This document shows, piece after piece, positions 16,701 to 42,160 of a DNA stretch of 64,000 bases; the first letter of the stretch is position 1, and each line of letters starts with the position of its first letter. The stretch comes from Puffinus mauretanicus (Eukaryota; Chordata; Aves; Procellariiformes; Procellariidae), in NCBI GenBank assembly GCA_023333565.1, contig JAJKFH010003358.1, forward strand, positions 62,001-126,000, written 5' to 3'. The position numbers and the translations under genes are program-made. The notes beneath the pieces were generated by a model, which searched no databases, was not told where the DNA came from, and saw only the letters and a list, made by a program, of their open reading frames with translations.

Positions 16701-16757
16701 TCTCCCCATCAGCTTACCCTGAATGACCAGGTGTCCCTGTGCTCTGGTATTTACCTG

Positions 16758-17045: not shown

Positions 17046-17482
17046 TGTTGCATAACGACGCGAGACAGAGACTTCTTCAATATGAAGCAGGAATCATGTC
17101 TGTCTTTATTTGCTCCTTAGCAAAGTATTTATAATCAACTCGTGGCCTTCACATACATTTTTGGCCTTTGTCCAAAGCACAATTACAGATAGATAGGATA
17201 CAAGATTACAGATAAACAGGATACAAGACAAAAGCCAAATTATGTTCTAAATATATTACAAGCTCTATAATTAACACAATGTTCTTCCAAATTTCATTCC
17301 ACCTTTTTAATGATGATGTTCTCCTTATTTATTGCTCCTTACTTATCACCAAGTCCCTTATTCTTTGTACACAACTTTTCCACAAGTCATAATTCAACTT
17401 AATCACCGGACTTTGCCAAACCCTTATCTACCGCGTTGTAACATCGTTCAGTCAATTTTACTTAATTGCAGAAAATCCCACA
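17046..17482 (-). repeat. Provirus 3' LTR
   Basis: A 437 bp LTR with TG...CA ends, TGTGGGATTTTCTGC at its 5' end on the minus strand and TTATGCAACA at its 3' end. It is preceded on the minus strand by the purine tract. Five substitutions separate it from the other LTR. The env stop codon lies inside its first 25 bases. Confidence 0.93.
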
Positions 17483-22052: not shown

Positions 22053-23916
22053 GCATAGGGAATCTGCTGGTTTTTCTTGGAGGTGTTTAGTGTCATAGCG
22101 TCCCTCTGACTGGCGCTCATTATCATGTTTCCCGACTGCAAAGGTTGCCCCTGTTTAGTAAATCGCGCACGGCATTCCTCTACAACATGTCCTTGTCGCT
22201 GACACCGCGTACAATATTTACTACCCAAATTGTTTTGAGATTTCTTGGGACAAGTCTTTTTAAAATGTCCTTTTTGCCCACATAAAAAACAAACTCCCAA
22301 GCGCTGTCGAGTATTTCTAGGTTTTAAAACAGGTTGCAGAGCAGCGGCCAAAGCCTTAGCTTGTGCCTGGGCATATACTACGGCCTTATCTTGTTCTATT
22401 ACTAGATCTGCCCTAGCACAGGCTTCCATCATTTGCACTAGCCCAGCTGTTTTTGGTAACGTTGAAAGTATTCGCTTACACACATCATTAGCATTTTGTA
22501 CAGCCAGATCAAGCATTACAGCTGACTTTGCCTCGGTCGATAAGTTTGGTGATTTCTCTATTGCAGTTCTTAACCTATCCAAAAATGCAGAAAAAGATTC
22601 TGATGGCAGTTGTAGTATTTTAACATAAGGTGGAGATGCGGTCGCAGAAACCTGTAGTGCTTTCAGTGCGACAGCAGCAAGAGATTGAGATTGCTGCAAT
22701 ATTCGTCGATCTAACCGAGCTTGTGCCCTAGGATGCACAAAAGTTCCTTAACCCATTTCAATGGGTCCCCATCTTGCAAGTCCAAATTTTGCATTAATGC
22801 AATTTCACAACGTTTTCTCCAATCATCTTTAAAAACTAACTTTTGCATGGGAGACAAAATCAACGATACTAACGTTTCTATATCAAAAGGGGTAAGAACA
22901 TTTTGTGAAAATACCACATCAATCAAATTTCTTACATATGTATTATCCAGACCATATTGCATTATTGCCTTTTGTAGTCGATCTAATAACTGCCAATCGA
23001 ACTGCTGCCATTCTCGCACCTCCGCTCCTGCAGCGTTATGATGAAGGTGCACAGGAAAAGCTCTTAACGGACCTAGGAATTCACCTTCAATAGCTGCATC
23101 CCGAATTATTCCATGCCATTTCTGACCAGCGTCCATAGTCTGTGTTTTTTCGTCTTGCGTATTTGTACTCTTGAAACCTGTTGCTGACTGTCGTTGAAGT
23201 TGTTGATATAGATTCTGTAACAGTCCTGATTGTTGTCTCATCGCTTCCTGCAGCTTCGTACCCAACTGCCCGAGAACAATTTTTTGCCTGTTACCCTCTA
23301 ACTGTAATGCCGAAGCTTGCCTTTTTAATTCTTCTTCCTCACGCTTTATCTGCTGGAATTCCTCTAACAGCGGATTTTCTTGCTCCATCATTTCATCTTC
23401 ACTGATTAGAGGTGCAGCAGGGGTTGCAGGCTCCATACCAGCCCCTGCACCAGTTTCTTCAGGGGAAAAATAATCAGGCGGCAAGGGGGATTCAAAAATA
23501 GACTTAACATCTCTTACATTTGCTGGCAGGACCACAGGATCAGGTGAAGAAATAGAAGCCTGCTCACTCCTTTTGACCTTTTCTCGGAGGGAATATCCTA
23601 ATGCTCGTTCTGCAGCCTCCATAATTTCAGACTCAACGCGAGTCTTTTTCATCAATTGATTTATGAGATACCATACGTGACTAAGGGTTGCTGCTTCCTT
23701 ATTTCCAACTTGCACGGATTCCCATAGATCCTTTCCTAAAGCCTGCCAGCAGTCTTCCTTAAAACCCTCATCCATCGTTGTTAAAATGTTCCTCCTCTGT
23801 CCCCATTGCAACAAGTCCAAAGCCCCCTTTTCCTTCAGAGCTATTTCATGCTTCTCTGCCAGAGATAACAATATAGCTAGAACAGCTTTCACTTCTACTG
23901 ATACAGTAGATCCCAT
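21986..23916 (-). pseudogene. gag: Provirus gag (matrix, capsid, nucleocapsid) with one frame break
   Basis: The first frame (23916-22711, 401 codons) starts MGSTVSVEVK with a myristoylation-type Gly2, has a PPDY late-domain motif at 146-149, a Glu/Gln-rich probable coiled coil about 170-260, and the N-terminal capsid domain. It loses frame at an A4 run (22739-22742, plus strand). The second frame (first Met 22738, to 21986) carries the major homology region (about 43-62) and two CCHC zinc knuckles, C150-C163 and C176-C189. A one-base loss explains the break. It may be a real inactivation or a homopolymer error. Confidence 0.9.
22007..22013 (-). promoter_or_regulatory. Gag-pro ribosomal frameshift heptamer GGGAAAA
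   Basis: On the minus strand G GGA AAA in the gag frame lies eight codons before the gag stop. A -1 slip there enters the dUTPase frame exactly. It matches the X XXY YYZ rule. No equally standard heptamer was seen in the short pro/pol overlap (21300-21336). Confidence 0.75.
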
Positions 23917-24057
23917 TATGAAGCAAGCCGCTCACCTGGTACCAGTCAGTTTCCAGCGGCGCCCGTCGTTATCCCAGCCGTCCTACGACTAAGGCTGACT
24001 CAAAATATTCATAATACAGTTTTCATTCTCCGACGACGAATCACGTCGGGGTCACCA
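23917..24057 (-). other. Provirus leader between primer-binding site and gag
   Basis: About 140 bp of leader, shorter than in most retroviruses. It would hold the splice donor and packaging signal, neither of which I can assign. Confidence 0.5.
24039..24057 (-). promoter_or_regulatory. Primer-binding site for tRNA-Trp
   Basis: The plus strand AATCACGTCGGGGTCACCA is identical to the last 19 bases of vertebrate tRNA-Trp, so the minus strand is a perfect tRNA-Trp primer-binding site. Two bases separate it from the LTR end. Avian alpharetroviruses use the same primer. Most mammalian betaretroviruses use tRNA-Lys. Confidence 0.92.
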
Positions 24058-24059
24058 AT

Positions 24060-24496
24060 TGTTGCATAACGACGCGAGACAGAGACTTCTTCAATATGAA
24101 GCAGGAATCATGTCTGTCTTTATTTGCTCCTTAGCAAAGTATTTATAATCAACTCGTGGCCTTCACATACATTTTTGGCCTTTGTCCAAAGCACAATTAC
24201 AGATAGATAGGATACAAGATTACAGATAAACAGGATACAAGACAAAAGCCAAATTATGTTCTAAATATGTTACAAGCTCTATAATTAACACAATGTTCTT
24301 CTAAATTTCATTCCACCTTTTTAATGATGTTCTTCTCCTTATTTATTGCTCCCTACTTATCACCAAGTCCCTTATTCTTTGTACACAACTTTTCCACAAG
24401 TCATAATTCAACTTAATCACCGGACTTTGCCAAACCCTTATCTACCGCGTTGTAACATCGTTCAGTCAATTTTACTTAATTGCAGAAAATCCCACA
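24060..24496 (-). repeat. Provirus 5' LTR
   Basis: 437 bp with the same ends as the 3' LTR and five substitutions from it. It is followed on the minus strand by AT and the primer-binding site. Confidence 0.93.
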
Positions 24497-24503
24497 TGGT
24501 GTG

Positions 24504-24743
24504 GAATACACCTTTGGCCAGTTTGGGTCAGCTCTCCTGGCTGTGTCTCCTCCCAGCTGTGTCCCCTCCTCGCTGGCAGGGCAATATGAGAAGCTGAAAA
24601 GTCCTTGACTTAGTGTAAGCACTGCTCAGCAACAACTAAATCATCAGTGTGTTCTCAACATTATTCTCATACTAAATCCAAAACACAGCCCTATACCAGC
24701 TACTAGAAAGAAAGTTAACTCTATGCCAGCTGAAATCAGGACA
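24504..24743 (-). mobile_element. ERVL-like solo LTR, part 2 (5' part)
   Basis: This continues the interrupted LTR from 17045 with GAATACACCTTTGGCCAGTT and ends CTGAAATCAGGACA, the reverse of the TGTCCTGGTTTCAG start of the family. The 7 bp at 24497-24503 is the right copy of the provirus target duplication. Confidence 0.88.
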
Positions 24744-25231
24744 ACCTAGCGTTGCCCTCGGGAAGATCTGTGTCTTTACAGCTAGGGATCATCTGGGAGC
24801 TGATCTCCTTATGTAGAATGTGGAGCTAGGTGTAGTTAAAGCAGAGGTTGTTCCCAGGCAGTGCTCTGTGCATCTTGTTGAAAGAGCAGGCTGTGGGCCT
24901 TATTTTGAAGGAAGGTTTCCTGTTCTGCTCCTAGGGAGGCTGCACAGGCGTGGTGTTGGGGACTGCAGGGATGGGTGGGATCTGCTGTGATTTCTCGTAA
25001 ATGTGAACTGGACTTAATGGACTTGAATGAAAGCAGAGTGACTGCGTACGGTTTTCTTCCCCAGCTCCAGTTCCAACCTATGTGTTTGGCACTAATAAAC
25101 GAGACCCTGAGCTATTTTCCAGGTATGAGGGGCTGCCAGTTAGCAGAGAACATCACTTACTTGGGTAATGGTGCAGTTGGTCTGTGACCAGGGATGTGTA
25201 CTTTTGTGATGGTGCTTTCATGAACATTTTC
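24744..25231. other. Unique sequence, no gene recognised
   Basis: No exon or known repeat was recognised. Confidence 0.45.
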
Positions 25232-25316
25232 TGGTCAGCAACTGCATTGTGCATAACTTGTTTTGTATATACTTTTATCATTATTATTATTTTCCCTTCC
25301 TTTTCTGTCCTATTAA
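25232..25316 (+). mobile_element. ERVL-like LTR, internal fragment
   Basis: CAACTGCATTGTGCATAACT, the (ATT)n run and TTTTCTGTCCTATTAAA match the middle of the 38680-39261 type LTR. It stops exactly where the duplicated segment 25317-25889 begins. Confidence 0.75.
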
Positions 25317-25889
25317 ATGTTTGTTTTCATTTATCTTGAGTGTTGAAACTCTGAAAGGGGCCGATGAGTTGCCCTCAGTTTGCTCAGTTTGCTCCCTCCC
25401 CTTTGGGGAGTGCGGTTAATGTTTGCTTCTTGGCTTTGCAGAGAACAAAATCCATTAATACACCACCTCACTTGAATTGCTCTCGTTGGGAACCGATTAG
25501 AAGCTTATTGCTGCCTCATCTCGCAAATGGCATGCGTTCTGGTTCTCATTTGTCGAGCAGCCTGTCGGCTTGTCAAATGACTCCGCAGAACAATTCGATT
25601 ACTCCAAGCAGCAATGCTGATAGGAAGAGCTTACGTACTTCACTGCTGGCGATTCTGTGCTTTTCCCTCTGCAGGCGGGAAACGTGATTCGTGGGTGGGC
25701 TGTGGCTTTAACCAGGGAGGGCAAAGCTGCTTCTCTGTGTATTTCCTTTCCGCCTCTTCCCTTAGCCCCTCCCCTCCCTTCCCCTCTGTGAGGCTGGTTT
25801 TGTGGTGCACCTCCACTGGTGAAACGAGCTCCCACAGGAAACGGAGGGAAAGAGGAAAGGGGCAAGGTGAGAGGTGTCGCAGTCCTTAG
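25317..25889 (+). repeat. Dispersed 0.57 kb duplicate, copy A
   Basis: Near-identical to 31260-31829 in the same orientation, with a few substitutions and small indels. The edges are abrupt on both sides. It has no LTR-like TG/CA ends, no poly-A tail and no target duplication that I can see, and no recognisable protein. It could be a segmental duplication or an undescribed repeat. Confidence 0.9.
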
Positions 25890-25954
25890 TTTGTAGATTT
25901 AATACCTAGGCCCCATTCAGAAAATACAGCGCCTATGTGGCTCAGCGGTCCCTG

Positions 25955-26545
25955 TGTTACCGTAAGTCGGTGAAATAAGAACTCTCTACACCCGGTTTTG
26001 GAGTTTTAGAAAGCAGGCATTCTTTAATGCGGCGCCGGGCGCACAGGGGATCGCTCCAGCTAGTGTGCGCACGGCTTTATTTAACTACAGGAGCTATATA
26101 CAATCAAGATATACATATCCATTAGATTTCTGGGAAATGATTAACGTATTTATGTTGTTTCCTGGAATTCATTCACGTATGTAAAAGTCTTTGACGCATG
26201 CGCCTTTATATGCATAGGTGGTCTTCCAGGGTCTCCTGGTGGTCATCGATAGTCTTCCTCACAGTGTCCTTTAGTTGAAGTCAGTCTTTACGCATGCTCC
26301 GCTTAACCCTTGGCTTGGTTTCCACGATTGTCACTTGCAACAAACTGGCTTACTCCGGCATAACTTCTTTATCTACTCTACTCAAGATACAAAGCTGGCT
26401 TCCTTCTCTATTTTACGCAGAATACAAAGTTTCAGGGCCTTTTTTATCTATTGAATGTCCGGCCTATCTATTCCTAAGGCATTCCTAACCCATCTGCATC
26501 ATTTCAACCAAAGAACTCTTTACTATTCCTTTGTTGTTGGTATCA
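25955..26545 (-). mobile_element. Solo LTR, second family
   Basis: On the minus strand it begins TGATACCAAC and ends CTTACGGTAACA, about 591 bp, with an ATTAAA polyadenylation signal followed by GAATGCCTGCTTTCTAAAAC. CCTG flanks both ends (25951-25954 and 26546-26549), fitting a 4 bp target duplication. No internal viral sequence adjoins it. Confidence 0.7.
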
Positions 26546-28076
26546 CCTGCAGATTTTTACTATTTATAGCCATTTCTATAAATACAGGAGTTCACCCAGT
26601 GGGTTCACAGGGTGCTGTGCTGCTTGTAAACGGAATCGTTTTCATCCTTGCTGCAGTCTGGAGGTGGCAAGTGCCAGCTGACAGATTCAGATGGAGATGA
26701 AAGCGAGCGATACACATGCGACGGTGATCCTGCCACAAGGCATGCTGTTTATTGATCTGGGAAGACGCTGCAGTGACTCTGTCAGAGGACAAGGTTTTCA
26801 GTGCTATTTCTGTATTTGATACCCAAGGGATTTGTTTTCCCTCTGCGTGTGTTTCTGTGCAGGCACGTGCATGAAGCAGAGGTGTTTCTCTGTGCCGTAA
26901 CTGGGACTGATGACGGCTGGGTGGGTGGGAAGATGTGCAATCACGGAAGAAACTTCCTGCAGCTGCCCTGCCGTGTCCTTCAGCATAAAACAGCTCTTCT
27001 GGTCGTTTGCTGCCATCGAGAGCTACCGAGTGCATGGGAAGGTGTCGGGTTCCTGCTCCCTGTGGTCAGCACTGGTCCTTACTGGGTAGCCTCCCCCAGC
27101 AGCCAGCGCTGTACGCCCCTGTCAGTTGTTAGGCAAACATCTGCAGCTGGAATGTGTGGCGTGTTCCTCCGATTTGTCCGTTCTCCACCTTGCATAGCAA
27201 CACATTTAAAATGCTGAAATGTGCTCTTTTTATTGCTGTTAACGTTCAAAAGTGTTGTTTTAGTCTGGTCAGCAAGGTATTTGGAACACATCACGGTTGC
27301 ATTTTGAGAATAAAGTAGGTTCCCATCCTTCCCCCCACCCCCAAACTGTGTAGCATCCAGACCTTTTCTCCCTACTCCCCTACGTGTAGCCTGGCTTTGT
27401 TCGTTTTGCTGCCTGAGACCAAGAACATAGCAAACAACTGAGATGTGTGCTGTGTGCTCCAGGCCAAAGAAAGTTTTAAACGGTCCCAGTTTATTTTATG
27501 CAGCCATGCAGCGTGGTACCTTTTGGAAGGAACGCTGGGATGGTGTATCAGAAGTTACTGAAAATGGGATGATACCGGTAGTGGTTTATTTTCAGTGCCT
27601 AGTTTGGGAAAGAATATTCGAAAATACTGAACTGTTAAGAGAAAGATGAGTGCAAGGCAAGGAGCATCATGCTCCATTTATTGCTAAATGCATGTTTTCA
27701 TTTCATTCAAACTAGAAAGTAAAGAAAGACTGTACCTGCAAAAGAATTGGCATAGCTGTCTTTGTTTCCCAGAGCATACAAGCACCGGGGGAGCAGTTTG
27801 GAGGATCAGAACTTCAGCCTGCTCTGGGTGATAAACCCTCAGGAGAGGAAAGAGAAACCCCACTTCTTTCAATACAGCTCTACTTATCTTAATATTTCTT
27901 CCTGTTAGATTGTGTTGGTGGTCAGACTCTAAGCATGTGATTAGACTGTTAAAAAATCAAGATATTTAGGGATTATTTACTGCATCGAATCCTCTTGCAA
28001 GCAGTGCACTGTATTGCCCTGTGGATAGTATAATGTCAGGACTGGCATGGCTGGTAATTTTCCTTTTCTTTTCTAG
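26546..28076. other. Unique sequence upstream of the first BBX-like exon
   Basis: I looked here for the HMG-box exons that precede the 28077 exon in BBX and did not find them. No other gene or repeat was recognised. Confidence 0.45.
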
Positions 28077-28275
28077 TGGAAGGATGCATTTATGAAGGGA
28101 AATCCAGGGTACAGGTGGTGCCCCACAACAAACCAACCTGTGAAGACCCAGACATCCACTGTTACAAAGAGGAAAAAGCTATGGGCCTTTGCTTCAGCCT
28201 CTGCAAAAGATTGAGCAAGCCCGAGGAAAGTGACCAAAAGTGAAGCAATGCCACAGCGTCACTTCGGGATGGCAG
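28077..28275 (+). pseudogene. BBX: BBX-like exon following the HMG box, with in-frame stop
   Basis: Bounded by TTTTCTAG and GTGAGA, 199 bp, ending in phase 1. It encodes WKDAFMKGNPGYRWCPTTNQ and continues through KRKKLWAF and EAMPQ...FGMA, which I recognise as the segment of the HMG-box transcription factor BBX just after its DNA-binding box. A TGA at 28212-28214 interrupts the frame where BBX has a leucine, within a cluster of changes. The next BBX exon is at 36807-36874 in matching phase. Introns are kept, so this is a DNA-level copy rather than a retrocopy. Most likely it is a decayed partial duplicate of BBX. The HMG box itself was not found. Confidence 0.82.
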
Positions 28276-29194
28276 GTGAGATTTCCATCCATGTTCCTCA
28301 AAGGTAGCAGCCTTGTTTTGTTTGAGGCTGGAATCGAGCTGCAAGACCAGTTTTCTTTACTGCGCATGGTACCGTAGTGCAACTACCTTTCATGTCCCAA
28401 ATTAAGTGGCCAAGACTCTAGTTAAACCTCTGCATAAGAACCAAAAATTTTCCTTAGTGCATGATTGCTTTCAAGAGTCGAGTCCAGATATGTGGCATGT
28501 CGTGCCCCATACCTCATGTGGGGTCCGGATTTGATTGATTTTTAATTCAGGCTTATCTGCTGTTAGAGATTTTCATTTTCTAGTCAAACAGGAAAATGCT
28601 GATTGTGTGCATTCTTCTTCCCTTTCATGGAGTGTTGTACTATGTTTAGTAATTTTCCGTTTATGAATATAATTTATGGGTGTCTGTGGAGTTGGAGGTG
28701 TTAACGTTCTTGTGGATGAATGTACCAGTGGAGCTAACTTTTTGTATTGAAAACAAGAGAAGCGTAATTTAGTTTCACTTAAAATGTGCTCTTTTGCCCA
28801 TTATACCTTGGAGGGTCGGATTCTAACCTTTTAAACATTAAAAAAAGAAAGAAATAATCAATCAGATCCATGAATAAGTGTAGGTGGAGCACCTGAACTG
28901 GTGAAAGGCAGGAATTGTTAGTTAATTTATGGCTTAGGCTAGACAATGGCTCTGTTATTAACCCTTAAGTGTTAGTTCCCTCTATCAATCCCCCCTTTTC
29001 TAAAAAGTTAGTAAATTCATTTACTATAGCAGAATGTTCACTAAGTGGCTTTTGCAAGAAGCAGGAACTATATACATACTATATACATTAACCACTCTGT
29101 TAGACTTAGGCTTGTGGTCATACAAGGGTATGTAGGACAGAAGGTCACACTTCATCACACGAATCAGATGAACATATTTCACAGCCATAATCGC
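28276..29194. other. BBX-like intron sequence, no other gene recognised
   Basis: AT-rich. A CCCCCCTTTT stretch near 28990 resembles a reversed polypurine tract, but no viral protein is readable next to it. Confidence 0.4.
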
Positions 29195-29390
29195 TGTTTT
29201 TGGTCGCTCCCCCTCGCTCTCTGTCCGGCTCCCTGCCCCCATTTTTTAATTCCTCCCTCTGTCTTTAGCCCATCGCTACTTTTTCCTTTCTCCATCTCTC
29301 TCTGTCTGGCTCCCTGAGCTTATTTTTTTCATCCCTTCCTCTGCCCCATAGACTGTCGCTGTTTTTGTCTTGTCTGTCTGTCTGCCTGCC
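29195..29390. repeat. Short pyrimidine-rich block related to 14880-16700
   Basis: It repeats CTCTGTCCGGCTCCCTGCCC, a T-run and CTCCATCTCTCTCTGTCTGG, the same motif order as the 1.8 kb array, then a TGTCTGTCTGTCTGCCTGCC run. Confidence 0.75.
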
Positions 29391-29398
29391 TGTATGGG

Positions 29399-29640
29399 CG
29401 GGAGCTGTAGCGCTGGGGCACGGGGCTGTCTGGCAGCCATGTTGGTTCCCGGGGCATGCTGGGAGCTGTAGTGCTGGGGCACGGAGCTGCCCGGCAGCCA
29501 TGTTGGTTCCCGGGGCATGCTGGGAGCTGTAGTGCTGGGGCACGGAGCTGCCCGGAGGCCATGTTGGTTCCCGGGGCATGCTGGGAGCGGTCAGTTCCCC
29601 ACACTCAGCTTCCCGGCGGCCATGTTGGTGTCGGGAGGCG
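29399..29640. repeat. 61 bp tandem array carrying ZNF143-like and YY1-like motifs
   Basis: Four units with period 61 begin near 29400, 29461, 29522 and 29583; the last is diverged. Unit junctions read GGCATGCTGGGAGCTGTAGT, whose reverse strand matches the ZNF143/Staf site pattern ACTACA..TCCCAG.ATGC apart from central bases. Each unit also has GGC.GCCATGTTGG, close to the YY1 site GCCGCCATCTTG. The block is CpG-rich, as in TATA-less promoters. No gene starting here was identified. Confidence 0.8.
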
Positions 29641-29687
29641 CAGGCTCTGCTCCAGCTGCAAGTGCTCGGCCGGTGGTTTGGCAGGTA

Positions 29688-30252
29688 TGTTGTCCGAAAA
29701 GCGGATTGGTGCCCGGCGTGCAAGTAAGCAATTCCACACGCTGAGGAGAGAGAGTGTTTTATTCAGGCCTGGGTGCTCGGTGGACTTGCCACAAATCAAG
29801 CACACCTGGTCTAGTCACCTTTCTGTTTATATCCGTGCTTCTCATACATATTTTAAATTTCTCTTTCACATATTGATTAAATTCCCGAGAACTAATTATA
29901 ATATTGCATCGTCTTAAACACATGCACACTAAAGCCTTTAGGGTCTCCTTGGGGGTCTCGGGGGGTCTCTGGTGGTCGTTAGGGTAGTGAACTCTTCATG
30001 AACTTATTTCCTCTTTACCTTACAGGGTTGCAATTTGTCCCTGAGCCATGCTTGGACCACGTTTGTTTATAGTTTCCAGAGCTAAAATTAATTATCACTA
30101 CCTCTGAAACACAGAGTTTATAATTAATTACTACTCCACACAATTACAAACACACAGCTGTTAGTTATCTAACTTCTAAGCAACAAATCTTCATTGTTTA
30201 AAATTACAGAAGCGAGCAATGTAGAATCCACAACAAACTAAACTATCTATCA
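29688..30252 (-). mobile_element. ERV1-type LTR, solo, same family as 62767-63314
   Basis: The reverse strand shares TATATCCGTGCTTCTCATAC, the TTTTATTCAGGCCTGGGTGC polyadenylation region and the end TTTTCGGACAACA with the right-edge provirus LTR. No primer-binding site or coding sequence adjoins it. The 5' boundary (about 30252) is approximate. Confidence 0.75.
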
Positions 30253-31259
30253 CCATAGTGTTCTTAAATTAAAACATATACATCTTGATCTCCTCCAATC
30301 AAACACCCACTCACTAGCTTCATCATTCTGGTTTCTTATTAACTGGTCTTTTAACCCAGTTCTGGGCGAGGGCTATACACAGGATGATAACACTTTGAAG
30401 ATTAATGTTGATTAAGATTAAGATTAACAGGTACAGTCAGCCCGAGCGGGAGCTTGCTGTCCTTGCTCTGCCGCTGCTTTGGCAGCCGCCTCGCGTTAGG
30501 AGGGGACGAACGTTCTGGCTTCCTGGCTGGAGTCTGGCAAGTTCAGTGGGTGAGGGACGGACCGTAACGTGTAATGTGAACCCGGCGTCCTTCAGGAGTG
30601 AAAAACGGAGTGTAGTGTTTTCTGGGGATTTTTTTTTTCTTGTTAGATCTCTGGGATTCATGTGACCTTTAATAGGCAGTTGGTGGGATTTAAGCATAGC
30701 TTTGAAGTTAAGCACGAGCTAACTGCTACCCTGCGGTGTAGCTGGAATCCACTTGCGAGCTCCTGTTCCTACCACACGCATCCTTCCCCAGGCTTTCGCA
30801 AAACGGAAGGGATACATCAAACCGACCTCACAAACATGTCCTGTGCTTTTTTCCTCTTACCTGGAATGTCGGGACATGCCCCTGCTGGGCCATGTCTGCC
30901 GCTCTGCGTGGGAACCAAGGTGGTGTCTTTCCATTCCAGGATAAGGACTTAGCTTTTTTTTTTTTTTTTTTTAAGTGACTTTAGAGACATCCTTAGGCTG
31001 GCTGTGTTAGGTTGGTTTACTGCAGAGTTGGTCGAATGGAGGAAAACAGTAAGCTCCACTATTGCCTTTGGCGTTTTCTCTTTACTGTGTAGCTCGTTTA
31101 AGTTATCTTCTCATGACCTGGCAAGCGGAAGCTTTGGCTTCATTCTAGGCCTTGGTCTAACAGTCACGAAGATCAATGTTGAAAGTCTTTCTGAGGTTTG
31201 CTTCAGGCCCCTATATGCATTTTATAAAAGTGCTTCTTGGCCACTGTTCAACTTTTTCC
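30253..31259. other. Unique sequence, no gene recognised
   Basis: No recognised exon. It contains a T-run near 30954-30972. Confidence 0.45.
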
Positions 31260-31829
31260 ATGTTTGTTTTCGTTTATCTTGAGTGTTGAAACTCTGAAAG
31301 GGGCCGATGAGTTGCCCTCGCTCAGTTTGCTCCCTCCCTTTTCGGGAGTGCGGTTAATGTTTGCTTCTTGGCTTTGCAGAGAACAAAATCCACTAATACA
31401 CCACCTCACTTGAATTGCTCTTGTTGGGAACCGATTAGAAGCTTATTGCTGCCTCATCTCGCAAATGGCATGCGTTCTGGTTCTCATTTGTCGAGCAGCC
31501 TGTCGGCTTGTCAAATGACTCCGCAGAACAATTCGATTACTCCAAGCAGCGATGCTGATAGGAAGAGCTTACGTACTTCACTGCTGGCGATTCTGTGCTT
31601 TTCCCTCTGCAGGCGGGAAACGTGATTCGTGGGTGGGCTGTGGGTTTAGCCAGGGAGGGCAAAGCTGCTTCTCTGTGTATTTCCTTTCCGCCTCTTCCCT
31701 TAGCCCCTCCCCTCCCTTCCCCTCGGGGGGAGGCTGGTTTTGTGGTGTGCCTTCACTGGTGAAACGAGCTCCCACAGGAAACGGAGGGAAAGAGGAAAGG
31801 GGCAAGGTGAGAGGTGTCGCAGTCCTTAG
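31260..31829 (+). repeat. Dispersed 0.57 kb duplicate, copy B
   Basis: The partner of 25317-25889, direct orientation, about 5.9 kb apart. The left flank is unrelated to that of copy A, which is an LTR fragment, and the right flanks also diverge immediately after CAGTCCTTAG. Confidence 0.9.
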
Positions 31830-32693
31830 AAGTCCTATCAGAAGAGTGACTTTTATGCTCAGTAAGTCAATAAGGTTTATTGACTTAACAGGAAGAACAA
31901 GTAGGAGGTCTTGGTCTGGCTGGCTGCTGTCCCCCAGCGCTCCGGCTGCACTATCCAACTGTAGAGCTTCTGAGTACAGAGAGATGTTGAATTGGCAGCT
32001 GTCAAAGCAGAGGACAGAGAACTTGAGAATGAATTAGAAACTCATCTAATCCCTTGTTTTATCTAGAGAGCCATTCATTTCTGAAGAAGGCCCTCTTTTG
32101 TGCTACAGGTGATTTTTCCTAAAAATTTTTTTTTATTTGTTTATTTTCTGCCGCCTGAGTCAGTGAGCACAGTACTTCACAGGTCTCACTCCAGTCCTCA
32201 CGCCAATGAAGGCTGGCTGTTTCATGAGTGTAACGATAGCCCATAAAATAACGACAGCTTCTGACAGAGATGTTGGCAGCATCTAAAGCGCGGCAAGTCT
32301 GCCGTGCCAAATGGATTCCTGTTTTGTCCCCTATATACCAGTTCGTGGTAAATACGTTTTGTTGTCTTCTTCTCCCCTCGACTTCATGTGATAGTTCAAT
32401 TCAAGTCTGACCCTTCTATCCGGTACAACCTCTTTTAAAACCCAGGCTGTGTGCTAACTGATGAACGAAAATGTAGCTGAGGAAGCGTAGAAATGCAGCA
32501 GACTGTCTTGCAACTTCAAGGCAGATCGCTTCCTTGGGACAGGGATTATATGATTCCAGAATAAATCCAGGAAATCTGTTTACTTGTTGGTAGTTGTTAA
32601 TCCTGTCTTGATTGCTTTTTACATATTCCATTCCGTTTTGGAAAATGTAATATAGAGAGAGCAAGATCTTCCTTTCTTTTTCTTAAGTCCCCC
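31830..32693. other. No gene recognised
   Basis: About 31845-31900 has an AATAAA-like signal on the minus strand and could be an LTR end, but the boundaries are not visible. A 43 bp stretch at 32651-32693 (TATAGAGAGAGCAAGATCTT and following) recurs at about 32926-32968. Confidence 0.35.
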
Positions 32694-32888
32694 TGATGTA
32701 GTAGGTACAGTATCTACTATTCCATACTGCTTGCTTCTGTAATTTTACTGTTCGCTTCTGTAATTCTAAACAATGAAGACTTGTTGCTTAGAAGTTAGGT
32801 AACTAGCAGGTGTTGTGTTTGCAGGTGTGTAGAATTGTAACTAGTCTAAATTGTGTATCCTTAGTCTAAATTGTGCATCATTAGGCTC
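32694..32888 (+). mobile_element. ERV1-type LTR, 5' fragment
   Basis: TGATGTAGTAGGTACAG, then AACAATGAAGACTTGTTGCT and GTGTTTGCAGGTGTGTAG, match the 5' part of the LTR at 62767-63314. It is lost after about 190 bp, between two copies of a 43 bp direct repeat. Confidence 0.7.
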
Positions 32889-32969
32889 TATAGATAGAGA
32901 GAGTAAGATCTTCTATCTCTATATATACAGAGAGTAAGATCTTCCTTTCTTTTCCTTTAGTCCCCCACA

Positions 32970-35900
32970 GGCCATGTCTCTCCTTTATTTTTGGCATTCC
33001 AACAGTAACCACCCCACTTTTCAGTTTCTCACGTTGACCTATGATTGTGTCAAGAACCTGAGGTGTGGCACCAGCACTGGGCTTCTGACCTGCAGACCCG
33101 CTAGTGGTGTCCCTGCTCATGCAGCCAGGAAGTTGTAACTGAGCATGTTTTTCTCATGACGTGGCTCACCTGTGATACGTGAGGGCGTAAGGCAAAGACA
33201 AGCGCTGTTTGCAGGTGAGCGTGACCATTGCAGCATCTACCCTCAGAGCTACAGAGCTAAGTGGGCAACAGCTTTCCTCTGCAAATGTGCAAGACTGCCA
33301 ATACTTTCACATTTCTGCATCAGGAGAAAAGCACCTGGGCCAAAAAGCCCACTTTTTAGCGAGGCAAAGGGTGGAAAAAAAGACACTTCCTAGACTAGCC
33401 AATATCCCGATAGAGATGCACTTTTTGTTTTTAGAAAGAAGCTGCATTCTGCACCCAGGTGAAAGTTAGTTGAAACTGGTACCTGCTGGTCTTCTTTCTG
33501 CTTAGTTCGTCCTCAGTTCTTTCTGTCCTCTGAAAAACTGCAGTGACAAACAAGCCAGCCTGCTGAGTTTATAATCAGACCAATACTAACAAAGAATGTC
33601 ATTCCCAAATAGTGAGATGGTTGTAAGCTATTGGGAAAGTCATGAATCATCTCCCATTCTGCACGTTCAAATTCTTCACTATTTTCTCCCTACCATTGAT
33701 TTAACCGTAACTTGCTTTAAAATAGCACTTGAAATTCCGAATTTTTCGTAACGGTAAGTTCTTGGTACCATAATAGAAACGTTGTGCTGAGAAGGCACTA
33801 TAAACATATGGCAATGTTTGTATATATACATTTTGTCTTCCCTTAGATGAAGTAATTTTGTAATTTGAAACCTTAGTGGAACGATCTTTGGTTTTATCAT
33901 GATCAGACATCTAAGTGCCAGCCCTCTGCTACAGCCCCCCGTGAATACAGCATATTCAAGTTGCTTAAGCACCAAATTAGACTTTCAGTTTCCACTTAGC
34001 TGTCATTTTTTTCGTTCCTCTTAATTTTCATATTTAAATGAAGAGTTTAAGTATTTGCTTACTTGGGGAAAAAACAGTGCTATCCTTGTCCTGTTATGAT
34101 AAGCTATGTATTGGAAGGGCAGAAAGCTGAGACCACCAAGAAGATACTTAGAAGAGGGGGAAGAATTTTAGAGCCCTAAGTTGGATGTTCTTCAGGTGGC
34201 CAAAACTGAGGAGGGGGAAGAAGACCTACAGGTAGCTAAAGGGAAGCACAGGAGAGCAGCTGGGAGCCAACAGTGTGATGTGGGCATAAGGAAGTGCTCC
34301 ACTGCAGTGTGTCAGGCAAAGTATTTTCAGGAACTGTGGAGAAGAGCTAATGCCATTGCACAGAGCCCAGCTCATCTGACGGGGTTGCTCTGCTGGTCCT
34401 TCACGTACAAGAAAGATGAAGTCCCCCTGGAATAACTGGAGAGGAGAGCTGCAGGGATTGCTGGGACATGGGAGATGGAGGTGCGTGATGACATCAGGAG
34501 TTCTTGATTTGCTTCGGCTAGAAGAGCAAGTGGGAGAAGAGTGGGGTGACTCCTGTAAATGCAGAAGAGGGAAATACCATTTAGGGAGAACAGTTACCAA
34601 GCCTGAAGGTGTGGGCACCAGAGAAAATGTGTGCCACCTGGCCCTGAGTAAATTTAGGCTGAAAACTGGAAGAAAACTCTTAAGGCTTAGAAGATTTGGG
34701 TTCTGCAACAGCCTTCCAGTGGAAATAAAGAAAGTAGAAAGCACCCAGCCAACCCCTTATTGCTTAACATGGAGTTCAGTGAGTTTATGATGGGCCCGGA
34801 GATCTCTTCCAATCTCTCCTTCCTCCAAATTAACTGCCTCTTCAGGCATTGTCTTTCAAGGTATGTGTTCCCTGTTCACTTTTTAATTGCTCTCATGTCC
34901 TCTTGTTTGAAGGACTGAACTGTTGCTGATCGAGTATTTTGATGGCAAGAAGTGCTATGCTGACAGGATCGCTTCACTTGTGGATCATGCTTAGGTACTT
35001 GCTGACCCTTCCCATTTTCTGTCCCCATTTCTGTCCCCATCACTTCTTGTTACTAGATCCTTTGATAGTGCCTTGTCTCTTTGCAAACGCTTAATACCTT
35101 TTGTTCCCTTTTCTATTTAAAAGCAAGAAGTTTAAAAACAAAAACCAAACAACCCCCCACATACACACACCTTCTACCTGTTTGTCACAGTAAGGGAAAC
35201 AATTAATTCCAGTTGAACATTGGGTTTGAAGCCAGATGCTCTTTAGGCTGTATTCTTAAGATAATGAGCCACTCTTCTATGCTAGAGTTAGTGGATGAGC
35301 TTGGTTTATTCATATTGCTTTCTTCTGCTTCTGTTTACTGCTGCTCTAAGAGAGTACTGAAAAAACCTACCCTGCGTATGTTAGCGTGAGATGCTGTCTG
35401 AGGGAAGACTTGTGGCAGCACCTGTGGTATTGAATTAAACAGCACCGGTGAGTGTTCCCGTGAACTGGACCTTGATCATCTGCAGTGCTAAATCGTTTGG
35501 AGGTTTACAGGTACAGGTTTGTCCCATGTCAGCTGGAAAGCTCCACAAAGTCCTCGGCACCACTCACGAGTGGGAATGGGCCAGGGGATTTCCCCGTGGG
35601 CATTTTGGATGCAGTTACTCTGCATCCAAATTTTGCACAACAAAACACAACCAAATGGACAAGGGTAATTGTGCCGGTTGGCCTCCATTCCAGGGAATGG
35701 TCCCGGGCACGTGTAATTTATTGTTGTAGAGAGAGTTTTTGTATAGTTCCGGGAAAGGAAATTGGAAAATGTGAGTGCATGCTTAGTGAGACCTGGGGAA
35801 GGTTACTTATCTTTGGTGTCTGATCATTAGTGAAGTTGGTGTCTCAGCAATACAGCGAGGATAACGCTTCCGTTTGTCTCACACTGTGGCTGTTGTGCGA

Positions 35901-36806
35901 GACGTTTGGGCCACAGACTGTCTCCCTCTCTCTAGATGACACTCTGTTAAATTGGGCCCCTGCATTGCTTCCAAGGCACTCCCCCAAAACCAGACATTTA
36001 GTCTTCATAATGATGAAGAGCAACCACCGTTCTGAGTGGAAAAGCCACTCCATGAGTCGTGCAGTGCCAGTGTTCGTTGCTTTCTCTTCTTGTCGTTTTC
36101 CGAGCTCCTGAAGTGCAGGAAGGCTGGAGGCGAGAAGCTGTCAGCATCAAATACTCGGAGGAAGAACATTTATATCTCCATTTTACTTTCCTCAATTATT
36201 GACTGTATTGGCAGGGCAACAAGTAGGCAGGCAGGTTGCCTGGCCAGTGCCTGTGCGGTTCTGGCACAGAGGATCAAGCGCTTTGTGCTTCAGAGCTGTC
36301 AGGCTGGCACTTTTCACCACTAAATGCAGCTCTAGATTAAAGCTAAATGAAAATAGAAATTTTGCTTCAGAGCTTGACCGTGTCATTTCGTTCCATCCTT
36401 TTACTTGTTCAGTGGCTACGGAAGGGAGCCACTCCCTTGGTAGGAGCATCCACTGAGTTATAAACATGCGTGATATCAGAGCATCTTTGTGTATATTTAC
36501 GCATGAGATCATTACAGCTGCTGTTTTAAAGATCTCTGTAGTACATGAAACCTTTGGCAGTAAAATTGTAAATCCACGCAATGGTGTGTTAAGCACACAA
36601 ATCCAATTAAATCCTTTAAAGAACCTTGAAAGCCTCTCCCAGAGGGTACAGAAATGGTTATTTGTGATTCTCTTGAGCTGCCTTTTATGGCAGCTTGCTT
36701 AGAGTGTCTGTGGCAAGTAGTCTTCCGGGGGCTTAACGCTGCACATGGTAGGTTCTTGAAACAAGCAAATGGATAAACTTAAGACTTGGTTTTACTCTTT
36801 TAACAG
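32970..36806. other. BBX-like intron, no other gene recognised
   Basis: Short frames only. About 34170-34800 has a run of plus-strand frames resembling no family I know. A perfect hairpin lies at 35604-35630. Confidence 0.4.
35604..35630. repeat. Perfect 11 bp hairpin
   Basis: TTTGGATGCAG (35604-35614) and CTGCATCCAAA (35620-35630) are exact inverted copies around the five-base loop TTACT. No T-run follows and no gene ends here. Function is unknown. Confidence 0.75.
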
Positions 36807-36874
36807 CTCCTACCCAAATGGGAGGCCTGAGTAGGCTGCTTTTAGCAGGGGAACATGCCCTGACTGCGCAAGAG
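36807..36874 (+). pseudogene. BBX: BBX-like next exon
   Basis: Bounded by TTTTAACAG and GTAAGG. The two leading bases complete the codon left open by the 28077-28275 exon, and 22 codons follow: PTQMGGLSRLLLAGEHAL then TAQE. This is the BBX sequence expected immediately after the FGMA of the previous exon, with a few substitutions and no stop. Order, strand, phase and splice sites all agree with one gene. It is labelled pseudogene because of the stop in the partner exon and the failure to find further BBX exons to the right. Confidence 0.82.
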
Positions 36875-38275
36875 GTAAGGAACTCTCTTCTCTCCCTTAC
36901 CGTGAGCCCTCAGTTTAAAGAGAGCTCTGAAGAGGAATGTTTGACCAGTGGGAAATGAAATTTAAGATACCTACCTCAGGTGCGTCTGAAGTGTGAGCCC
37001 TGTGATACGAGTCTTGTATCCCAACCATGAATGTAGAGGTTGGGCCCAGTTTTTATATGGGTTCAATATTAACTCTGCTGACTGAATATTTGATCAGACC
37101 AGGCAAGTCTGCCCTCTTGAGAGGATAGTGTCACGGGTGGAAAGGTTGAAATACAGTGACTGTTAACAAACAGGCGGTTTCCAAACTGTTTTGGGCAAGG
37201 ATTTCATGTGCTTGTGTAATGCCTCACACAACTGTGGCCTTGGCACTAACAGCAAAATAAATACCTGATAATTTCCATACAGTCAATGTCATTATGTACC
37301 CATTCTGAAACCATGCAAGTGCTAACAAGCAATCAAAGTATTGCAGGATATTCCTATTCACTAAGTCTTTATGTCTAAAAAGAAGTTTGTAGTTCAATTG
37401 CCATCAAAACCATTTTGTTTTTACGAAGGAGTCTAGTAAATAAAAGTGTTCCTGCATGTCTCCAGTAGAGCTGAGATCTCTGGTCTTTCTTTAGACTGAT
37501 TATTATTTATGATCTATTTTTTGGGCCAGCTTTGAGAATTGTTCAAAAGGTGGCTTGGTAAAATAGGTAGTCACTGCCATAAACCTCTAGCCTGGAAAGA
37601 AGAGCCGTGGAAGCGAGGAGGGTTTCTTTTTTCTTTTTTTTTTTTTTTTGTTGTAATTGGGAGGAAAAGCAATAATTAACTATCTATGTGTGATACCTCC
37701 AAATGCAAAATGTGACGTGGATTGCTCCTGTACTGCCAAGACTGAGCCAAGACTCCTCAATGCTTTGCAGACTGGTTTGAGCAGTGGAAATCTTTGTGCA
37801 GATGTGGGTACTGGCTTTCTGTGCTGCAGTTAGAATCATGATGGGTCAGAAATTAGCCTGTACTTACTAATGAGTTACTGTATTTTAATTGCCCTATGCT
37901 ATCTCAGAAGCAGGTAAGTGTCAGAGCGCTTTCCCAGGGAATAAAACTACACATCTCTGATTCTTTCAGAGGGTCCCCTATGTAAACTGCATCCTCCGGA
38001 AGACTCTGGGTGCTTGGTATTCTCAAAGGGACCCAAATGGATGAAGTTCAGTCCTCCTGACTGCATGTCAGCAGGAATTACGTTTCCAGCTGTGCTTCTG
38101 TGCACTGAGAAACTTCCTCAGTTTCTTTGCTTGGCAGACCTGGTGTGTCTTCCATTCTCCTTTGCTTCCTTTTGTTTCAGTGTTTCAGTGGTGATTAAAT
38201 ACGCAGCCAATATTCCTTAGGCTTGTGTTTCCCCAAATGCAGTAAATATCCGAAACCTATTTAGACTTGGGTAAC
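36875..38275. other. No further BBX exon or other gene confirmed
   Basis: A splice-acceptor-like CTTTCAG near 37971 is followed by a plus-strand open frame to 38217, but its translation does not match BBX convincingly. The rest is AT-rich. Confidence 0.4.
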
Positions 38276-38653
38276 TGTGTTATAAGGGGCCTCAAACAAG
38301 AATACACCCAAGGACATAATTTGCAACTGTGAATGGTCCATCCTGGTGGAGTGTAGATAAACCAGCAGACGCCAATTGAAACCAAGATAAGGAACGTGAA
38401 AACTTTACAAACAGAGAGATAAGCAAAGACAAGACCATATATGGAAAAGAAGAATAGAATGATTATGTATAATTCTTCTGGGAGATCCAATGTATATGTA
38501 TGATGTAGGACGATATAAGCTGTAACTGATGCAACACGCAGCATGCATGTTAGGAGGAACGATCCCCTGTGCATCCAGCGCTGTTAATAAAGAGAATGCC
38601 TGCTTCTTAATGCTGCCTTGGGGTTAAGAGGTTTATTCCCGATTTTGGTGACA
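38276..38653 (+). mobile_element. Solo LTR, third family
   Basis: Starts TGTGTTATAAGGGGCC and ends near GATTTTGGTGACA, with AATAAAGAGAATGCCTGCTT as polyadenylation region, about 380 bp. That region resembles the one in the 25955-26545 LTR. The exact ends are uncertain because I see no target duplication. Confidence 0.6.
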
Positions 38654-38679
38654 ACTTAACAGGACTTCTGGCTTCCCAT

Positions 38680-39038
38680 TGTCCTGGTTTCAGCTGGGAT
38701 AGAGTTAATTTTCTTCCTCGTAGCTCGTATAGTGCTGTGTTTTGGATTTAGTATGAGAATGATGTTGATAACAGAGTGATGTTTTAGTTGTTGCTAAGTA
38801 GTGTTTATCCTGAGTCAAGGACTCTTCAGCTTCCCATGCTCTGCCAGGTGCACAAGAAGCTGGGAGGGAGCATAGCCAGCACAGCTGACCCAAACTGGCC
38901 AAAGGGGTATTCCATACCATATGAGGTCATGCTCGGTGTATAAGCTGGGGGGCAGCGATCACTGCTCGGGGACTGGCTGGGCAGTTGGGTTGGTGGGTGG
39001 TGAGCAATTGCATCGTGCATCACTTGCTCTCTACATTC

Positions 39039-39081
<43 letters not shown>

Positions 39082-39261
39082 TACTACTACTACTACTACA
39101 ATTATTTTACTTTATTTAAATTATTAAACTGTTCTTATCTCAACCCCCAAGTTTTCTTACTTTTATTCTTCTGATTCTCTTCCCCATCCCACTGGAGGTG
39201 GGGGGGAGTGAGCGCAGCAGCTGTGTGGTGTTTAGTTGCTGGCTACGGTTAAACCACGACA
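38680..39261 (+). mobile_element. ERVL-like solo LTR, full length
   Basis: 582 bp from TGTCCTGGTTTCAGCTGGGA to GGTTAAACCACGACA. It shows a GTATAAG promoter element after the CATGCTC segment and the polyadenylation region TTTATTTAAATTATTAAACT. An expanded (TTA)n(CTA)n microsatellite occupies about 39037-39100. The flanks do not match, so no target duplication supports the ends here. The family has 5 bp duplications elsewhere in the window. Confidence 0.9.
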
Positions 39262-39285
39262 CCGTGCTCGCGAGTGTGGACAGAG

Positions 39286-40038
39286 CGTGATGGTGTGCTC
39301 CCCCTGCCCCCAGCCTGACTTTTTCCCTAACCCTGCCCAAGCGATAATCACCTGTGTGGACCGTGATGGATGCAGATAACAACACAATAGGCGATGTATT
39401 CACCTAACCACAGTGCTGATCAATGGGTGACTCAAGCCAAATTTGGAAGAAACTAACTGCAGTCGGTGTGTAAATATGACTATGAGTCAATCATCTTACC
39501 CCCATAAATAGTGGGCAGCCCAAGAGCCCTTTCAGCTCTCCTGCACGGCAGCGGGCTGCATGCCAGGATCTCCCCTTGAGTAGGGACGCCTCTCAGGGTT
39601 ACTCCTCGAGGTTGAGAGATTCCTTGCTGCAACAGATCTGTGGTAAGTGACTAATAGCATGCTAAACTTGGAAATCTTAGCTAAGTGATATAAAGGATTG
39701 ATTGCGCGTATATAGTCCTTTAGACATAAACCATTGACCAAGCCTGGGACTAGGACTGGATCCAGCCGTACCTAGACTCCTCTCTGAGAAGGAGTTTAGA
39801 AAGCAAGGGGGTCCTTTCTGAACATCATGACTCAACAGGAGGGTCTCCCTGACAGTTTTGTCTGACCCTGTCCTCCATGCAGTAACTAATCAAGTGTACC
39901 TTGCCATCGAACCTTGTTAACTCACTGTCGCATTTACTATCCAACTTTGTTAAATTGCTGTCTTACATCAATAAACATATAGCTACTTCTCTTTTACGAG
40001 TGAAGTGCGTCTCTCCCTCTTACTCCATCTGCGACACA
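39286..40038 (+). mobile_element. Solo LTR of the same family as the decayed provirus at 58506
   Basis: About 753 bp, from CGTGATGGTGTGCTCCCCCT (first base changed from T) to CTCCATCTGCGACACA, with AATAAACATATAGCTACTTC near the 3' end. It matches the reverse of 58506-59320 throughout. It lies 25 bp after another LTR. Confidence 0.85.
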
Positions 40039-40869
40039 GAGGAGACATAAGATGCTCATCTTTGCATGCCTATGGGTCAACCTATGGTTGGATTTCCATG
40101 CTTATGCTTGGGAACAGTTTCACCCTCAAGCCAGTGTTCGGGAGGTTAGCAGAACATGCTAGGAGGTGGTATGACAGGCTCAATAAGAAAAGCTCAAGAA
40201 TTAATTGCAGAATTGGTAAGCTGCTTTCCTCTTCAGTGGAGGTTTTTTAGTTATGTTGCATTACAGTTAGTATTGGCATGGGGGACTCGCGTAATTGTTG
40301 AGATATTTATTGTCAGCGAAGAGGTTCAGTAGTTGCTTAATTATGGGAAATACATATATACTGTTTTTATGTGCTTGTAATTATATAAATATGTAATCTA
40401 TCTAAACCCCTGGCATTTCTATTTAAAAAAAAGGACAGATGCAGTGTAATTTTTAAAAGAATGCTCTAAATGATATCGTGTAGTCTTGATTATCATTAAA
40501 GTATGTGCATGTACACATGCCTATATGTGGTTCTTCAACTGGGGAACCGCCAGAGTTAAGATTGCCTGTCAACATGCAGTGTGCCTGCTTGTGTATATGT
40601 ATGTTTATGCAGACTTGGGTGGCCTTATAAGCACAGGTTTTAAATACTATTACAATCTTTAAAATTGTTACTATAAATGAAGGCAGCACTGGCATAGTTT
40701 GCTCAGAACTTGGTGAAGATGAGGGAAATTATACTTAGAGGTCTGCTAATCCCACATAAATGTATTCAGCACCCACTGATTTTCTGTCAAGTGTATGTTA
40801 AATGGATGTATAGAGACTTTTCAAGTCAGGTGTTTAACCTTCGAGTTGTCAGAAGCCCAGATGTCAGGT
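40039..40869. other. Unique AT-rich sequence, no gene recognised
   Basis: Only short frames. Confidence 0.45.
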
Positions 40870-41005
40870 TGTTGTGGTTTAACCCGGCAGGCAGCCAAAC
40901 ACCACACAGCTGCTTGCTCACTCCACGCCTCCACCCCCCCCCCAGTGGGATGGGGAGAGAATCGGAAGGGTAAGAGTGAGAAAAACTCAGAAAAGGAAGG
41001 GAAAA

Positions 41006-41068
<63 letters not shown>

Positions 41069-41388
41069 CAAAATGAATGATGCACAATGCAATTGCTCAC
41101 CATCCGCGCTGACTGATAACCAAGTAGCGATCGCTACTTCCTGGAACACGCCTACCATTCATATACTGAGCATGACGTCACATGATATGGAATACCCCGT
41201 TGGCCAGCTGTCCTGGCTATGCTCCCTCCCAGCCTCTCATGCATTTGGTAGGGCATGGAAGCTGTCCTTGACTAGCAGGGTACTTAGCAACAACTGAAAA
41301 CTTCAGTGTGTTATCAACATTCTCCTCATACTAATCCAAAACACAGACTAGGAAGAAATTTAACTGTATCCCAGCCGAAACCAGGACA
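40870..41388 (-). mobile_element. ERVL-like solo LTR
   Basis: Reverse copy of the 38680 type, from TGTTGTGGTTTAACCC to GAAACCAGGACA, with an (ATT)n expansion at 41007-41066. Flanks CAGGT (40865-40869) and CGGGT (41389-41393) fit a 5 bp target duplication with one change. Confidence 0.9.
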
Positions 41389-41632
41389 CGGGTAACAAAG
41401 AGAACAGGCACCAGTGGGAGAAGGGGAAAAGGCACAACAGCCTTTACAAAATTGCCTTGGGACTTCAGTCGCCGTCTCTGTATGTCACTGGTTATGTTCC
41501 TATTTTTCTGATTTTTTTTCAATAGACTGGAGAGTTTTCTTCTGATAACAGAATTCCATGTCAGTACATGATTGATTTTCAAGCAGCGGCTAGAGTTACT
41601 AAGCAGATAGGCAGGAGAAGTCATAGACCTTA
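41389..41632. other. Spacer between two LTRs
   Basis: No gene or repeat recognised. Confidence 0.45.
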
Positions 41633-42155
41633 TGTTGTGGTTTAATCTGGCAGGCAACCAAATACCACGCAGCTGCTCACTCACTCTCCCGCCACCCCCC
41701 CAGTGGGACGAAGAGAGAATCGGAAGGGTAACAGTGAGAAAAACTCATGGGTTGAGATAAAGACAGTTTAATAGAACAGAAAAGGGAAAATAATGATAAT
41801 AAATAATGATAGAATATACAAAATGAGTGATGCACAATGCAATTGCTCACCACCCGCGCTGACCAATAACCAAGTAGCGATCGGTACTTCCTGGATCACG
41901 CCTACCATTCATATACTGAGCATGACGTCACATGGTATGGAATACCCCATTAGCCAGCTGGGCTGGCTGTCCTGATTATGTTCCCTCCCATCTTGTGTAC
42001 CTAGCTCAGTCAGTAGGCATGGGAGCTGTCCTTGGACTAGGAGGGCACTTAGCAACAACTGAAAACATCAGTGTGTTATCAACATTCTCCTCATACTAAA
42101 TCCAAAACACAGCACTAGGAAGAAATTTAACCCTATTCCAGCTGAAACCAGGACA
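41633..42155 (-). mobile_element. ERVL-like solo LTR with exact target duplication
   Basis: Reverse copy of the same family, TGTTGTGGTTTAATC to GAAACCAGGACA. CCTTA is present exactly on both sides (41628-41632 and 42156-42160), fixing the ends and the 5 bp duplication size of this family. Confidence 0.93.
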
Positions 42156-42160
42156 CCTTA

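What the first reader, a model, noticed from the sequence alone, without database searches (positions are those of the whole stretch)
28077..36874. Two phase-matched exons of a BBX (HMG-box) gene copy, one with a stop codon
Exons at 28077-28275 and 36807-36874 encode consecutive BBX segments, join in phase across a GT-AG intron of 8.5 kb, and lie in the right order. The first has TGA at 28212-28214 in a patch of changes. The HMG-box exons and later exons are not seen. An intron-bearing, partly decayed copy beside ERVs suggests a duplicated BBX locus, or a truncated product made by a paralogue. It is hard to spot because no long frame marks it.
Basis: partly seen in the sequence, partly recalled or inferred. 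Interest (0 to 1): 0.75.

Follow-up and report, generated by a model that had tools for sequence, protein, structure and literature searches.

The report
Amplified dead fragment of BBX gene
The two exons are a real but broken piece of the bird gene BBX, copied without its DNA-binding part and present in about thirty copies in this assembly, many of them as passengers in repeat units that also carry an uncharacterised protein-coding gene.

Summary
Window 28077-28275 and 36807-36874 are two consecutive BBX exons, in phase, with GT-AG sites and an in-frame TGA at 28212-28214. It is not the sole BBX locus: contig C540 of the same genome has these exons open and the only BBX HMG-box exon reported. 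The window copy is one of 32 extra matches of the first exon and 10 of the second (some may be alleles). The copied piece, about 13.8 kb, starts after the HMG-box exon, so it brings no HMG box. 31 of 32 extra first-exon copies share the TGA; the other has an 11-bp insertion. Among the copies, replacement and silent changes accumulate equally (0.97). Several copies sit in 14.8-15.3 kb tandem units about 99% identical that also hold an uncharacterised two-exon gene (765 aa) with dN/dS 0.63, whose named relatives are all neoavian. So: a pseudogene fragment hitch-hiking in an ampliconic module. Chromosome, expression and species are not settled.

The parts
28077..28275 (+). BBX exon that follows the HMG-box exon (199 bp), with splice sites; decayed copy
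28212..28214 (+). in-frame TGA, codon 46 of the exon; TTA in C540; shared by 31 of 32 extra copies
28276..36806 (+). GT-AG intron, 8,531 bp; C540 has about 4.8 kb; enlarged by inserted segments including a second copy of upstream BBX sequence (30428-31829)
36807..36874 (+). next BBX exon (68 bp), start of Pfam DUF2028, reading frame open
25313..44611 (+). BBX-derived segment, broadly colinear with C540:1166434-1180267 (blocks 78-89% identical, with insertions and one displaced block)
14237..17045 (+). flank shared with the 15.2-kb units of contig C799, where it joins the 24493-25236 piece directly
24493..25236 (+). continuation of that flank on the other side of the provirus
17046..24496 (-). 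endogenous retrovirus inserted into the module; LTRs 17046-17482 and 24060-24496 differ at 5 of 437 bases; a few host bases repeated on both sides; not part of the BBX copy
29400..29629 (+). 61-bp tandem repeat inside the intron, also present in the C799 units
7164..10636 (+). CCCAGCA-type minisatellite; one of like composition (65-74%) abuts the module on contig C128
50248..53616 (+). stretch also present in contig C799 (77.8-80.7%)

Best explanation
This is a non-coding duplicate of an internal piece of BBX. Step 1 (shown): a segment of about 13.8 kb with two exons and no HMG-box exon was copied from the BBX locus (C540:1166434-1180267). Step 2 (state shown, order inferred): the copy lost its reading frame by TTA to TGA; peptides from other birds with the same marker residues still read L here, so the duplication is probably older than the stop. 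Step 3 (shown): pieces of a module [flank - uncharacterised gene - BBX fragment] multiplied to 32 extra exon-1 matches, part of them in 14.8- and 15.2-kb tandem units. Step 4 (inferred): the arrays grow and stay alike by unequal exchange or gene conversion, and what selection keeps is the neighbouring gene, with the BBX exons as silent passengers. The window copy is a dispersed, founder-like member that keeps a long BBX stretch, lacks the neighbouring gene and was later hit by a retrovirus.
For: 33 exon-1 and 11 exon-2 matches in the genome, one each being C540. HMG-box and other BBX exons reported only on C540. Limits of the copied segment. TGA in 31 of 32 extra copies; the exon-1 splice dinucleotides are kept in 33 of 33. 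From their consensus to 10 representatives (of 32 copies) there are 20 silent and 72 replacement changes, ratio per site 0.97. Exon 1 is 86-90% identical to C540, its flanking intron 87-90% in 29 of 32 rows, so the exon has drifted as far as the intron. Tandem units: C2112, steps of 14.8 kb, neighbours 98.7-99.6% identical; C799, three alike units at 15.2-15.3 kb, 98.8-99.6%. Open two-exon gene, 765 aa, in one C2112 unit, its long exon open in three C2112 copies and in two of four C799 units; dN/dS 0.63, bootstrap 0.47-0.84. 13 of 28 non-C540 contigs with a BBX fragment are among the 21 with the gene; hypergeometric p 6e-22, contig lengths ignored.
Against: Exon-1 splice sites are kept in all copies and exon 2 of the window is open, so a spliced non-coding transcript is not excluded. 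Compared directly with C540, each of the 10 representatives has pN/pS 0.26-0.49, and the stem has 8 silent to 11 replacement changes: below neutral. Constraint on BBX itself explains part of this, but the first copy may have coded for a while. The window holds no piece of the neighbouring gene, and one search reported none on C764, so for this copy the link is by shared flanks only. 12 of 23 non-C540 contigs with exon 1 have no reported gene match; several are short. The 0.97 tally counts shared inner branches repeatedly.
Confidence: 0.85

Rival explanations
1. A working BBX paralogue that makes a short BBX-like protein from these exons.
For: Exon-1 splice sites kept in 33 of 33. Three peptides from elsewhere, one an annotated 90-aa 'BBX-like' protein of Phalacrocorax carbo, share 4 of 4 marker residues and have no stop at codon 46. 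Ratio to C540 below 1.
Against: TGA in 31 of 32, frameshifts in several, ratio 0.97 among copies; no second BBX HMG-box exon reported.
Confidence: 0.05
2. The copies are W-linked repeats, as W chromosomes of birds are rich in ERVs and duplicated fragments (recalled). This concerns place and does not exclude the best explanation.
For: Many copies on contigs of 20-170 kb; ERVs in the window.
Against: SMAD2, which usually has a W copy in birds (recalled), shows a single locus, C30, so no W copy is seen (one gene only; a second test with ATP5F1A did not complete). One module lies inside a 3.89-Mb contig, C128.
Confidence: 0.12
3. The numbers are inflated by the assembly (unmerged alleles, or arrays split wrongly).
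For: Some rows are identical or nearly so over the exon region: C1828/C1423, C2153/C2152, C2067a/C2006a, C1425/C1073, C1065/C365.
Against: Three exon copies in tandem on C2112 and five on C799 within single contigs, blocks 94-99.6% alike on C799; several well-separated lineages in the tree; the tool calls its counts lower bounds.
Confidence: 0.12
4. A processed (retro-) pseudogene of BBX.
For: None beyond decay.
Against: The intron and neighbouring BBX intron sequence are carried along.
Confidence: 0.01

Closest known systems
BBX (bobby sox homolog), HMG-box transcription factor
   Same: two consecutive exons after the HMG box, order, phase, splice sites, 67% identity to the typed human protein over exon 1; copies 86-90% identical to the C540 exon
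   Different: no HMG-box exon, no upstream or later exons in the window, in-frame TGA, neutral differences among copies
Ampliconic tandem arrays / gene-bearing macrosatellites (recalled: mammalian Y and X amplicons, chicken Z amplicon, HINTW on the chicken W)
   Same: head-to-tail units of about 15 kb, about 99% alike, with a gene that is open in several units, plus dead gene pieces as passengers
   Different: the gene is an uncharacterised, apparently disordered protein family with named relatives only in neoavian birds; chromosome unknown; expression untested
Segmental duplication with pseudogene fragment
   Same: partial gene copy with introns, dispersed and in tandem
   Different: unusual only in copy number and in its tie to a fast-evolving gene

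Membership tests
functional BBX gene | HMG-box exon | tested here: not met
   one BBX HMG-box exon reported in the genome, on C540; none in the window
functional BBX gene | open reading frame under constraint | tested here: not met
   TGA in the window copy and 31 of 32 extra copies; pN/pS 0.97 among 10 representatives, though 0.26-0.49 against C540
BBX-derived unprocessed pseudogene fragment | exon and intron colinear with the intact gene | tested here: met
processed pseudogene | no introns | tested here: not met
   8,531-bp GT-AG intron between the exons
tandem ampliconic array | head-to-tail units of high identity | tested here: met
   C2112 and C799; not shown for the window's own contig C764
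tandem ampliconic array | units hold an open, selected gene | tested here: met
   765-aa two-exon model in one unit, dN/dS 0.63; two of four C799 units frameshifted, several broken copies
tandem ampliconic array | germ-line or testis expression | not testable with these tools
   no RNA data held
W-linked repeat | lies on the W | tested here: inconclusive
   one SMAD2 locus only; ATP5F1A search did not complete

The most novel reading that the evidence does not exclude
Neoavian genomes carry a so far undescribed ampliconic gene family, fast-evolving, predicted disordered, with a basic nuclear-signal-like tail and repeated acidic 'LPDLSEY' motifs, that multiplies as 15-kb modules, perhaps on autosomes, and drags BBX gene pieces with it; such growth without a known host role would fit a germ-line conflict or drive system.
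Probability: 0.3. Interest if true: 0.65.

Novelty: new member of a known kind. Interest (0 to 1): 0.42.

Why it matters
The BBX exons themselves are ordinary decay. What they lead to is less ordinary: a multi-copy gene family that, where it has a name at all, is called 'proline-rich protein 36-like', 'uncharacterized' or the like, seen in storks, ibises, owls, pigeons, cranes, falcons and suboscines, and evolving under weak constraint. The shared BBX fragment gives a tag with which the growth of these arrays can be followed and dated. It also warns annotators: short 'BBX-like' gene models in birds may be such fragments.

Tried and rejected
Rejected: truncated HMG-box product (no second HMG-box exon); processed pseudogene (intron); sequencing error as cause of the TGA (31 of 32 copies); sole BBX locus (C540); W linkage as the leading idea (one SMAD2 locus, a weak test). 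A first alignment had misplaced gaps, and three rows (C1425, C1073, C365) showed low intron identity (0.72-0.73) because their flanks break off; frames and TGA were counted on a second alignment and the tree was rebuilt on trimmed flanks (then 65). For the 0.97 tally I used 10 chosen representatives of 32 copies. Pfam gave nothing above its cut-offs for the neighbouring gene or the nine relatives and one further homologue that were scanned. AlphaFold2 of one relative gave mean pLDDT 38, no fold; no fold search was run. A script meant to model the gene in every unit matched three C2112 stretches, only one of them to its stop, and no C799 stretch. Paper searches: listings and starts of abstracts only, no paper opened; two searches found 0 papers; no listed title or abstract start spoke of amplified BBX or of this gene family; the ten papers listed hold the word BBX 0 times; some papers hold it, unread.
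Full report
Observation. The window is C764:62001-126000 of an unnamed 1.21-Gb genome of 2,370 contigs. Exons at 28077-28275 and 36807-36874 are as described: order, phase, AG/GT sites, 8,531-bp intron, and TGA at 28212-28214 in frame. BBX identity rests on tblastn with a typed human sequence (9e-23 and 2e-6), on Pfam DUF2028 (46.9 and 49.7 bits, cut-off 25; the part before the stop alone matched nothing) and on the open exons in the same genome. The PDB match to the BBX HMG box is weak (E 0.18). No other BBX exon was found in the window with that 594-residue query (the remaining rows that I saw are low-complexity runs or scores near chance).

The BBX locus. C540 (1.26 Mb) has the N-terminal exon at 1161375, the HMG-box exon at 1163099-1163344, the first of our exons at 1169536-1169734 and the second at 1174566-1174633, and later exons at 1188953 and 1194896. 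Both of our exons are open there; the one TAG that one search lists at 1169533-1169736 lies in the splice acceptor, outside the exon. I did not read the whole gene. The extra matches to the BBX query cover only the first of our exons (query residues 135-203), apart from five weak ones (25-36%) on C885, C96, C52, C582 and C246, other HMG-box-type genes in my reading (74 of 79 candidates scored). That search missed the ten extra exon-2 copies that the DNA search found, so very short exons can be missed; the 82-residue HMG-box exon scored best of all on C540 and would not easily be.

The copies. Exon 1 has 33 matches on 24 contigs, exon 2 has 11 on 10 contigs, C540 included in both. The tool calls them lower bounds, but alleles may be counted twice: C1828/C1423, C2153/C2152 and C2067a/C2006a are identical over the exon region, C1425/C1073 and C1065/C365 nearly so. 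31 of 32 extra exon-1 copies have TGA for TTA; the 32nd, on C1175, has an 11-bp insertion. Other lesions: 1-bp deletions in C1425, C1073 and C1280, an extra base in the three C2112 copies, stops elsewhere in C1065, C365, C2140 and C1280. The exon-1 splice dinucleotides are kept in 33 of 33. Against C540 the exon is 86-90% identical, the flanking intron 87-90% in 29 of 32 rows and 72-73% in three with broken flanks. From the consensus to 10 representatives there are 20 silent and 72 replacement changes, 0.97 per site, neutral; inner branches shared by several rows are counted repeatedly. Against C540 each has pN/pS 0.26-0.49 and the stem 8 silent to 11 replacement changes, so an early coding phase is possible. 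The window copy groups with C1425 and C1073 (97/95 support).

Limits of the copied piece. Window 25313-44611 is broadly colinear, with insertions and one displaced block, with C540:1166434-1180267. The left limit lies about 3.1 kb after the HMG-box exon, the right one before the exon at 1188953. At 44612 a fragment that I take for a CR1 element begins (label recalled; no Pfam match).

Units. On C2112 the exon recurs at 14.8-kb steps, neighbours 98.7-99.6% identical; on C799 at 14.9-15.3-kb steps, the three most alike units 98.8-99.6%, the first and an inverted fifth more distant. Window pieces 14237-17045, 24493-25236, 29400-29659, 50248-53616 and parts of 26546-33214 recur in C799. In C799 the pieces ending at 17045 and starting at 24493 are adjacent; in the window a retrovirus lies between them, with LTRs 98.9% alike. 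So the provirus came later.

The neighbour gene. One C2112 unit holds a complete model: ATG at 23424, exon of 688 bases, 97-base GT-AG intron, 765 aa to the stop; two more are open as far as the fetched stretch goes, and the long exon is open in all three full C2112 copies, while a cut copy at the contig start has stops. C799 has a divergent version: its long exon is open in two of four units and frameshifted in two; the first exon, checked in one unit, is open. dN/dS between the two types is 0.63 (0.47-0.84, 382 codons). The genome search gave 70 matching stretches on 21 contigs, several broken. 13 of 28 non-C540 contigs with a BBX fragment are among those 21; 11 of 23 with exon 1. On C1175, C2112 and C799 a gene copy lies 5-8 kb upstream of exon 1 and points away from it (in the tandem arrays the next gene copy is then also downstream); on C128, a 3.89-Mb contig, a gene copy lies right next to a BBX piece with exon 2 and no reported exon 1. 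The window has no copy and none was reported on C764.

Relatives elsewhere. Three database peptides (one from Phalacrocorax carbo, two unnamed) share 4 of 4 marker residues of the copies and have no stop at codon 46; a fourth shares one of four. So the duplication is probably older than this species. For the gene, 24 and then 38 relatives were found; the named ones are from Mycteria, Theristicus, Strix, Bubo, Tyto, Grus, Columba, Patagioenas, Falco, Pitangus and Willisornis, neoavian birds by recalled taxonomy; many are unnamed, and only the best 7,994 and 7,995 candidates were scored. No Pfam domain above its cut-off; a structure model of one relative is disordered.

Chromosome. SMAD2 has one locus, C30 (seven of eight stretches 92-100% identical, one 73%); the C2289 matches (71-93%) are SMAD3 in my reading. 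So no W copy of SMAD2 is seen and W linkage is unlikely but not excluded.

Verdict. A real, ordinary kind of thing (unprocessed pseudogene fragment), unusual in number, and a pointer to a gene family for which I found no description in the searches named. Function of that family, expression and place are open.

Noticed in passing
G000 C2112:23424-25815 (L011:3424-5815) and C799 (L022, L023, L025, L026): Uncharacterised two-exon ampliconic gene, 765 aa, repeats of an LPDLSEY-type motif, basic tail, dN/dS 0.63, named relatives only in neoavian birds.
   Followed up: partly
window 17046-24496: Retrovirus with long frames on the minus strand and LTRs 98.9% identical: a young insertion inside the module.
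   Followed up: partly
window 7164-10636: CCCAGCA-type minisatellite with a short CCCTAA-like stretch at 10628-10670; one of like composition abuts the module on C128.
   Followed up: partly
window 1588-2862 (-): Frames that look like maestro heat-like repeat (MROH) exons; label recalled, no Pfam match.
   Followed up: no
window 29400-29629: 61-bp tandem repeat containing GCCATGTTGG, a YY1-like motif (recalled), also in C799 units.
   Followed up: no
window 47688-49206 and 57215-57455: Long purine- or pyrimidine-biased simple repeats; strong strand skew at 46-50 kb.
   Followed up: no
window 59843-62222 (-): Second retroviral stretch; reverse transcriptase domain by Pfam at 61584-62222.
   Followed up: no
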